This document shows positions 6,887 to 12,239 of a DNA stretch of 39,457 bases, in pieces; within the stretch, counting starts at the first letter, position 1, and every line of letters starts with the position of its first letter. Where the stretch lies: the NCBI GenBank assembly GCA_021399395.1, contig JAAFKJ010000156.1, positions 1-39,457 of the forward strand, read 5' to 3'. The DNA is from Candidatus Heimdallarchaeota archaeon (GTDB lineage: Archaea; Asgardarchaeota; Heimdallarchaeia; Heimdallarchaeales; Heimdallarchaeaceae). The translations under genes were made by a program, and so were the position numbers. The notes below the pieces were generated by a model, which was not told the origin of the DNA, did not search any database, and worked only from the letters and a program-made list of their open reading frames with translations.

Positions 6887-7708
6887 CTATTGCTGAAAGA
6901 ACTCGTTTAACCTCTGGTAAAAATATATTCTTTCCCATTCTATTTCTTTAATTCCATACTCATTAAAGAAGGATTCAACCCATTCTTCTCCGTAGTTGTA
7001 TCCTATACTCCAGGCAACAGCTGCAAGATCAAAATATCTGTCGTTTACTCCACCATACGGCCAATCAATAAAACCGCTTAATTGTTCATCTCTAATGAGA
7101 ATATTTGGAAGACAATAATCTCCATGTGAAAAAACAAGATCAAATTCAGTTGGTTTGATTCTAACTAGTTCTTCAAGCAACTGTTTTGGTTCTTTATCTT
7201 TCCACCTTTCATCAAATTGATTAGGATCAATATCGCCCTTTTGTAATCTAGCTTTAGCGAATTCTATCATATTATTAGGATTATTATCAATTGGACACTC
7301 TTTTAGATTGATAGAATGTATCATTTTTAATCCTTCAGCAAGTATTTTGATATTAGTAATCTTTTCATCATCTGTTTTAGCAATGTGAGAGTTCGTCCCC
7401 TCTACTTCTGACAACAGTAGGAATTCTCTCTCTTCTGCTATGTCAAAGTAAAGAACCGTTGGTACAGGCAGTTTCCTCTCTAACCATTCTAAGATGGTTT
7501 TTTCCTTTTCTAGATTGAAATCCGATTTTGGTTGGTTTATTTTAAGATAAAGAATTTCTTGATCGCGAGTAAGTTTGAAAACGAATGTTCCGGAATATCC
7601 AAAAGTATTGTCTTCCCAGTTGAAATCTTTTATCAACTTCTCTAATTCTTTTGGGAAATTAAATGTCAAATCCTTCTTATCGGCCATCAAAATCAGCTGG
7701 TAATTCAT
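6887..7708 (-). CDS. Aminoglycoside 3'-phosphotransferase-like kinase
   Basis: A 273-residue protein of the APH family. Lys 56 in LYLKIN should bind ATP; WLERKLPVPTVLYF (75-88) matches the hinge of APH(3') enzymes; LVFSHGDYCLPNIL (191-204) is the catalytic loop with Asp 197 and Asn 202; SGFIDWPYGGVNDRYFDLA (211-229) holds the metal-binding Asp 215. The C-terminal YGIKEIEWERIYFY also follows the APH(3') pattern. Family members phosphorylate aminoglycosides or other small hydroxylated molecules. An archaeal ribosome is mostly not the target of such drugs, so another substrate is likely. The ATG at 7687 (residue 8) is an alternative start. The gene precedes gamma-glutamyltransferase by 30 bases, suggesting an operon and perhaps a shared small-molecule pathway. 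Confidence 0.85.
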   Translation of the reverse strand: MNYQLILMADKKDLTFNFPKELEKLIKDFNWEDNTFGYSGTFVFKLTRDQEILYLKINQPKSDFNLEKEKTILEWLERKLPVPTVLYFDIAEEREFLLLSEVEGTNSHIAKTDDEKITNIKILAEGLKMIHSINLKECPIDNNPNNMIEFAKARLQKGDIDPNQFDERWKDKEPKQLLEELVRIKPTEFDLVFSHGDYCLPNILIRDEQLSGFIDWPYGGVNDRYFDLAAVAWSIGYNYGEEWVESFFNEYGIKEIEWERIYFYQRLNEFFQQ

Positions 7709-11923: not shown

Positions 11924-12003
11924 TAAAATCAAATTTCTGGTAGTTGAGGATTGTAAAAAAGTTTTGGTAGCGCCGACTAGACTTGAACTAGTGATCTTCG
12001 GGT

Positions 12004-12034
12004 TTTTCACTTCAGAACACGCAAATTCTGAAGA
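12004..12034 (-). other. tRNA-iMet intron at canonical position 37/38
   Basis: A 31-base insertion follows A37. It contains the hairpin CTTCAGAA/TTCTGAAG around an 8-base loop, as expected for a bulge-helix-bulge intron cut by the archaeal tRNA endonuclease. The exact edges may shift by one base because A/T runs flank both ends. Confidence 0.8.
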
Positions 12035-12055
12035 TATGAGCCCGACGGGTTTTCC

Positions 12056-12088
12056 ATGCTTAGGGATCATATGGAAAAACATCCATAT
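12056..12088 (-). other. Second tRNA-iMet intron in the D loop
   Basis: Removal of 33 bases leaves the D loop AAGTTGGAAA, the same length as the archaeal initiator AGCCTGGATA. The insert contains the perfect hairpin ATATGG/CCATAT, and the alternative pair TTTTCCAT/ATGGAAAA reaches into the 3' exon. The boundary can slide by one T (89/56). Non-canonical intron positions are known in some archaeal tRNAs. Confidence 0.7.
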
Positions 12089-12135
12089 AACTTACCCCAC
12101 GGCGCTATCTCTATGGCAATTCTTTTGTTATTATT

Positions 12136-12143
12136 CTTTTAAA
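12136..12143 (-). promoter_or_regulatory. TATA box of the initiator tRNA
   Basis: TTTAAAAG on the minus strand lies about 30 bases before the mature 5' end, correct for an archaeal tRNA promoter that starts transcription a few bases upstream of the tRNA. Confidence 0.5.
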
Positions 12144-12239
12144 TCTTTGTTTTGGGTAGAACTCTTTCTTAGCTGAGTTTAACGAAAAATATCCTTTTTG
12201 TTTGTTTAGCGTAGAATTTAATTACTTTTCAACGAATAT

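What the first reader, a model, noticed from the sequence alone, without database searches (positions are those of the whole stretch)
11965..12106. Initiator tRNA-Met carries two introns, one in the D loop
Seen: removing 31 bases at 37/38 and 33 bases in the D loop leaves a perfect 78-base initiator tRNA with A1:T72 and three G:C pairs. Known: 37/38 introns are common in archaea, whereas D-loop introns are best known from particular crenarchaeal lineages. Two in a start tRNA gene is unusual, since initiation depends on it. Both introns have self-complementary hairpins.
Basis: partly seen in the sequence, partly recalled or inferred. Interest (0 to 1): 0.7.

Follow-up and report, generated by a model that had tools for sequence, protein, structure and literature searches.

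The report
Twice-interrupted start tRNA gene in Heimdallarchaeota
The only start-codon tRNA gene found in this Asgard archaeon (a relative of the lineage that gave rise to eukaryotes) is broken by two small introns that its tRNA-cutting enzyme can probably remove; close relatives have lost one or the other, so the arrangement is real and evolving quickly, but it belongs to a known kind of archaeal gene.

Summary
Confirmed. On the minus strand, 12106..11965 encodes an initiator tRNA-Met with a 33-nt D-loop intron (14/15) and a 31-nt 37/38 intron; in-silico splicing gives a perfect 78-nt tRNA with encoded CCA. The boundaries are fixed by congeneric species that lack one intron or the other while keeping a near-identical mature tRNA. 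Both junctions have bulge-helix-bulge geometry with cuts after the second bulge base (UA^A/AA^G and UA^U/AA^A). At the D loop the central helix is 4/4 in all 11 species that have the intron, the inner hairpin shows compensatory changes, and the outer helix is missing: a relaxed (HBh') motif. The genome encodes catalytic and structural EndA subunits, the former with the loop lysine linked to cleavage of relaxed motifs, and RtcB ligase. No second initiator gene was found here or in 17 congeners. The window is from a Heimdallarchaeote. Two introns in an initiator tRNA are not unusual among Asgard archaea: 12 of 67 other Asgard initiator genes have both a 5'-half insert and a 37/38 intron. New detail: several intron losses within one genus, and one relative whose D-arm intron appears to have moved to 20a/21. 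Splicing itself is inferred, not shown.

The parts
12093..12106 (-). exon 1 of tRNA-iMet (nt 1-14: acceptor 5' strand, U8, G9, D-stem 5' strand, A14)
   Evidence: sequence; boundary fixed by congeners that lack the D-loop intron
12060..12092 (-). D-loop intron, 33 nt, position 14/15 (U13A14^A ... AA^G15), hairpin UUAUAUGGA..UCCAUAUGA
   Evidence: present in 11 species of the genus, absent in 6 with a near-identical mature tRNA; compensatory changes in its helix; BHB geometry
12062..12065 (-). intron CCCU, the 3' strand of the BHB central helix, pairing G9-G12 (12098..12095) of exon 1
   Evidence: minimum-energy fold and explicit BHB test, 4/4 pairs in all 11 species
12035..12059 (-). exon 2 (nt 15-37: D loop and stem 3' strand, anticodon stem 5' strand, CUCAUA; anticodon CAU at 12038..12036)
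12004..12034 (-). anticodon-loop intron, 31 nt, position 37/38 (U36A37^U ... AA^A38), hairpin CUUCAGAA..UUCUGAAG
   Evidence: absent in G006, G016, G017; BHB central helix 3/4 pairs, inner helix 6/6, outer helix (anticodon stem) 4/4
11965..12003 (-). exon 3 (nt 38 to 73 plus encoded CCA)
12138..12144 (-). TATA-like element (AAAGATTTAAAAGA context), 38 nt upstream of A1, conserved in the genus
   Evidence: a (T/C)TTAAAAG motif stands about 34-38 nt upstream in the congeners; a T-run follows the gene

Best explanation
This is the functional, single-copy initiator tRNA-Met gene of a Heimdallarchaeote (Asgard), interrupted by two protein-spliced archaeal (BHB) introns. Shown by sequence: the D-loop intron pairs its CCCU with G9-G12, so in the minimum-energy fold of the precursor the 5' strand of the D stem is held by the intron; two bulges, UA^A and AA^G, mark the cuts. 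The 37/38 intron can pair with U33-A35 and is marked by bulges UA^U and AA^A. Inferred: the two EndA subunits assemble as (alpha-beta)2 and cut both sites; the D-loop site, which lacks an outer helix, is the relaxed kind that needs such an enzyme. RtcB then joins the exons, the D stem and anticodon loop take their mature pairing, and the introns leave as small, probably circular, RNAs. The introns look dispensable: the 14/15 intron was probably gained once at the base of the genus and lost several times, and the 37/38 intron is older and was also lost more than once.
For: In-silico splicing gives a 78-nt canonical tRNA-Met. Members of the genus have both introns (8), only the D-loop one (3), only the 37/38 one (6), or the 37/38 one plus a D-arm intron elsewhere (1, G020), all with near-identical exons and conserved promoter positions. 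D-intron helix: 96% of cells paired, 9 cells with changes on both sides, 0/500 shuffles as good, 37-57% paired when slid. D-loop BHB geometry identical in all 11 species. One initiator anticodon arm in every genome of the genus where the gene was found. EndA pairs in 21 of 23 family genomes, one subunit found in the other two; catalytic Tyr/His/Lys and the lysine aligned with A. pernix K44 present in 21/21 catalytic subunits; structural partner; RtcB. [quoted passage not shown]
Against: No RNA data: cleavage, ligation and circles are inferred. The outer helix of the D-loop BHB is mostly unpaired, and the window gene's 37/38 central helix has one C.A mismatch. The genome is 82% complete, so a second copy is not strictly excluded, and three congeners yielded no initiator gene at all. 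EndA assembly is inferred from two separate genes. Numbers of losses depend on weakly supported nodes in one subclade (support 59-60).
Confidence: 0.93

Rival explanations
1. The 37/38 element is an ordinary intron, but the D-loop insert is a retained expansion: the tRNA works with a long D arm.
For: The insert folds into a stable hairpin on its own; no RNA evidence of its removal was available.
Against: It is absent without a scar in six congeners whose other bases are near-identical. Its CCCU pairs G9-G12, which the mature D stem needs, and its ends keep bulges UA^A/AA^G in all 11 species. A retained insertion would be expected to disturb the D-loop/T-loop contact (general knowledge).
Confidence: 0.04
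2. The gene is a decaying pseudogene or assembly artefact and a normal initiator gene sits elsewhere.
For: The window's genome is a draft, 82% complete in 201 contigs.
Against: Exons are perfect; promoter and terminator-like T-run are conserved. Anticodon-arm and 3'-half searches find one initiator gene per genome in 18 members of the genus. The sister species G018 has introns at the same two places in a 701-kb contig, and compensatory changes show selection on the intron helix.
Confidence: 0.02
3. The introns are kept for a function, such as a folding checkpoint on the D stem or intron-dependent modification of the anticodon loop or of G15 (the archaeosine site next to the 14/15 junction), not as passengers.
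For: The precursor fold hides G9-G12 until splicing and the 37/38 intron can pair with the anticodon loop; introns recur in these places across Asgard families.
Against: Each intron has been lost repeatedly within one genus with the exons unchanged, so neither is needed for an essential step.
Confidence: 0.12

Closest known systems
Multi-intron tRNA genes of Atabeyarchaeia and Freyarchaeia (Asgard; PMC11291895)
   Same: Asgard hosts; [quoted passage not shown] several per gene
   Different: There 92-95% of tRNA genes have introns; here roughly a third do. Whether their initiator genes have this layout is in supplementary tables that could not be read here
Non-canonical BHB introns of Thermoproteales and other Thermoproteota (PMC4090602)
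   Same: Relaxed BHB motifs in the D arm beside a 37/38 intron; (alpha-beta)2 EndA; intron transposition proposed there
   Different: Different phylum; D-arm sites named there are 20/21, 22/23, 25/26 'etc.', whereas this intron is at 14/15
Disrupted archaeal initiator tRNA genes: split in Nanoarchaeum equitans (37/38), permuted in Thermofilum pendens (PMC3218864)
   Same: An essential initiator gene is disrupted and must be rejoined during maturation
   Different: Here the gene is in one piece, in normal order, with two cis introns
Aeropyrum pernix (alpha-beta)2 EndA (PDB 3P1Z)
   Same: Separate catalytic subunit with the same Tyr/His/Lys and loop lysine
   Different: The loop was described as Crenarchaea-specific; it is present here in Heimdallarchaeota

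Membership tests
archaeal BHB tRNA intron | central 4-bp helix flanked by 3-nt bulges, with cuts after the second bulge base at both junctions | tested here: met
   D loop 4/4 in all 11 species; 37/38 3/4 with a C.A mismatch in the window's gene
strict hBHBh' motif at the D loop | outer helix h adjoining the 3' bulge | tested here: not met
   outer positions mostly unpaired (1-2 of 4); hence relaxed HBh'
archaeal BHB tRNA intron | removal gives a canonical tRNA | tested here: met
   ARAGORN tRNA-Met, full cloverleaf, 78 nt
archaeal BHB tRNA intron | excision in the cell, ligated exons, excised (circular) intron | not testable with these tools
   no transcript data held
initiator tRNA-Met | A1:U72 and three G:C pairs 29-31:39-41, anticodon CAU | tested here: met
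   sequence; a separate elongator-type tRNA-Met gene exists at G000:C106
(alpha-beta)2 splicing endonuclease | two separate paralogous subunits, one catalytic and one without the full catalytic triad | tested here: met
(alpha-beta)2 splicing endonuclease | heterotetramer assembly and cleavage of relaxed BHB | not testable with these tools
   inferred from homologues (PMC6379350)
pseudogene | broken exons or another intact copy in the genome | tested here: not met

The most novel reading that the evidence does not exclude
The D-loop intron of the initiator gene is mobile: in relative G020 a homologous intron (24/32 identical to the 14/15 intron of G009/G021, sharing an exact 17-mer) sits at 20a/21 instead, with its central-helix strand changed so that it pairs with the new exon. 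This would mean recent relocation, possibly across species, of a tRNA intron inside one essential single-copy gene.
Probability: 0.5. Interest if true: 0.55.

Novelty: new member of a known kind. Interest (0 to 1): 0.4.

Why it matters
Standard scans miss this gene, so such genomes could be annotated as lacking an initiator tRNA. A single genus in which two introns of an essential gene come and go, with intron-present and intron-absent versions of otherwise near-identical genes, is a clean natural experiment on how archaeal tRNA introns are gained, lost and moved. It also places a splicing endonuclease of the broad-specificity type, with the loop called Crenarchaea-specific, in Heimdallarchaeota, an Asgard lineage discussed as close to the origin of eukaryotes.

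Tried and rejected
ARAGORN with relaxed scoring placed a hit on the right span but as tRNA-Phe, among 282 mostly spurious hits. A 32-nt D-intron boundary was my first reading and was dropped when intronless congeners fixed it at 33 nt. A second initiator-like hit in G016 does not read as a tRNA. The first regular expressions for the Asgard survey and for intron parsing were wrong and were redone. Two papers on EndA specificity were not held.

Full report
WHAT IS THERE. The gene is on the minus strand, 12106 down to 11965. It reads exon 1 (14 nt), D-loop intron (33 nt), exon 2 (25 nt), 37/38 intron (31 nt), exon 3 (39 nt, CCA encoded). Spliced in silico it is 78 nt and scores as tRNA-Met(CAT) with a full cloverleaf. 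It has A1:U72 and the three G:C pairs of an initiator. The precursor folds far better than shuffles (z = -5.6).

WHOSE IT IS. The archaeal IF-2/IF5B protein in the window is 87% identical to that of Candidatus Heimdallarchaeota isolate CSMAG_1225 and 73-78% to other Heimdallarchaeota. The genome is a 2.8-Mb draft, 82% complete.

BOUNDARIES AND REALITY. A 3'-half pattern for initiator tRNA, searched in the 23 genomes of the family, found 20 initiator genes: 18 in the genus and one in each of two sister genera. In the genus, eight have both introns, three only the D-loop one, six only the 37/38 one, and G020 has the 37/38 one plus a D-arm intron elsewhere; exons are near-identical throughout. 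The intronless sequence GGGGTAGCRTGG fixes the D-loop intron at 33 nt here, between A14 and G15. An independent pattern for the anticodon arm again found one exact match per genome (one two-mismatch hit was examined and does not read as a tRNA; the others were not examined). A TATA-like element stands about 34-38 nt upstream in the congeners and a T-run follows the gene. A pseudogene or artefact is therefore very unlikely.

SPLICE SIGNALS. In 10 of 11 minimum-energy folds the D-loop intron forms a helix after a 3-nt bulge UAA, with G9-G12 paired to the intron's CCCU or CCUU. An explicit test of the canonical geometry (4-bp central helix, 3-nt bulges, cut after the second base) gives UA^A, 4/4 central pairs, 6/6 inner pairs tested, and AA^G, in all 11 species. 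The outer helix is mostly absent, so this is a relaxed HBh' motif. At 37/38 the window's gene has UA^U, three of four central pairs (C32.A mismatch), an inner helix, the anticodon stem as outer helix, and AA^A. Across ten distinct D-intron sequences, 96% of cells pair, four pairs change on both sides, no shuffle of 500 reaches the paired percentage or covariation score, and slid versions pair in only 37-57%.

MACHINERY. Both EndA subunits were found in 21 of 23 genomes of the family, one subunit in the other two. The catalytic one resembles the Aeropyrum pernix catalytic subunit (PDB 3P1Z); Tyr125, His133, Lys164 and the loop lysine 44 (A. pernix numbering) are conserved in 21/21. The other is about 180 aa and, in its alignment with the M. 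jannaschii enzyme, has no histidine at the catalytic position (my reading of the alignment). Two separate subunits of this kind mean an (alpha-beta)2 enzyme, by homology. Such enzymes cut relaxed BHB motifs, and in A. pernix the loop lysine is needed for that (PMC6379350). RtcB ligase is present. The mechanism is thus complete on paper; cleavage and ligation were not observed.

EVOLUTION. On a tree of rpoB, aIF5B and EndA the 14/15 intron is scattered. With one gain at the base of the genus, five losses are needed; three are robust (G010; G005+G015; at least one in the G004/G011/G014/G020 clade), the rest hang on nodes with support 59-60. The 37/38 position is also occupied in the sister genera and was lost in G006, G016 and G017. 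G020 carries a D-arm intron at 20a/21. It shares an exact 17-mer with the 14/15 introns of G009 and G021, and the exact 17-mer occurs only at those three places in 23 genomes. Aligned, 24 of 32 bases agree; 2 of 20,000 random introns with a matched hairpin score as high. Its central-helix strand differs and pairs 3/4 with the new exon. Relocation is the simplest reading, but it rests on one draft genome.

HOW UNUSUAL. Of 67 initiator genes parsed from other Asgard families, 26 have an insert in the 5' half (mostly D arm), 36 have a 37/38 intron, 12 have both and 17 neither. Best-scoring positions include 7/8, 14/15, 15/16, around 17-20, and near 22 and 25, so D-arm introns seem to have arisen several times. 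One gene of another family (G069) has the same 14/15 site and the same bulges. The sample is limited to genes matching the 3'-half pattern, so it is a survey, not a census. Published work already reports intron-rich, multi-intron tRNA genes in other Asgard lineages (PMC11291895) and disrupted initiator tRNA genes in other archaea (PMC3218864). No paper in the searched library was found that describes this gene or the turnover in this genus; most subscription papers are not held.

VERDICT. It is a new member of a known kind, made more useful by within-genus turnover and one probable relocation.

Noticed in passing
L071 (G020:C10), D arm of tRNA-iMet: D-arm intron at 20a/21 instead of 14/15, 24/32 identical to the 14/15 intron of G009/G021: a probable intron relocation.
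   Followed up: partly
L040 (G000:C28:6873 onward): tRNA-Phe(GAA) with an insert in the T loop, apparently a non-canonical intron; ARAGORN misses it.
   Followed up: no
L230-L233 and L243 (families f13, f20): Asgard initiator genes with 58-89 extra bases before the anticodon, suggesting two or three introns in the 5' half.
   Followed up: no
L227 (G069, family f11): Initiator tRNA intron at the same 14/15 site with the same bulges UA^A/AA^G in another Asgard family; independent gain or an old site.
   Followed up: partly
window 6887-7708 (-): Protein over the NCBIfam cut-off for APH(3') aminoglycoside phosphotransferases, in an archaeal genome.
   Followed up: no
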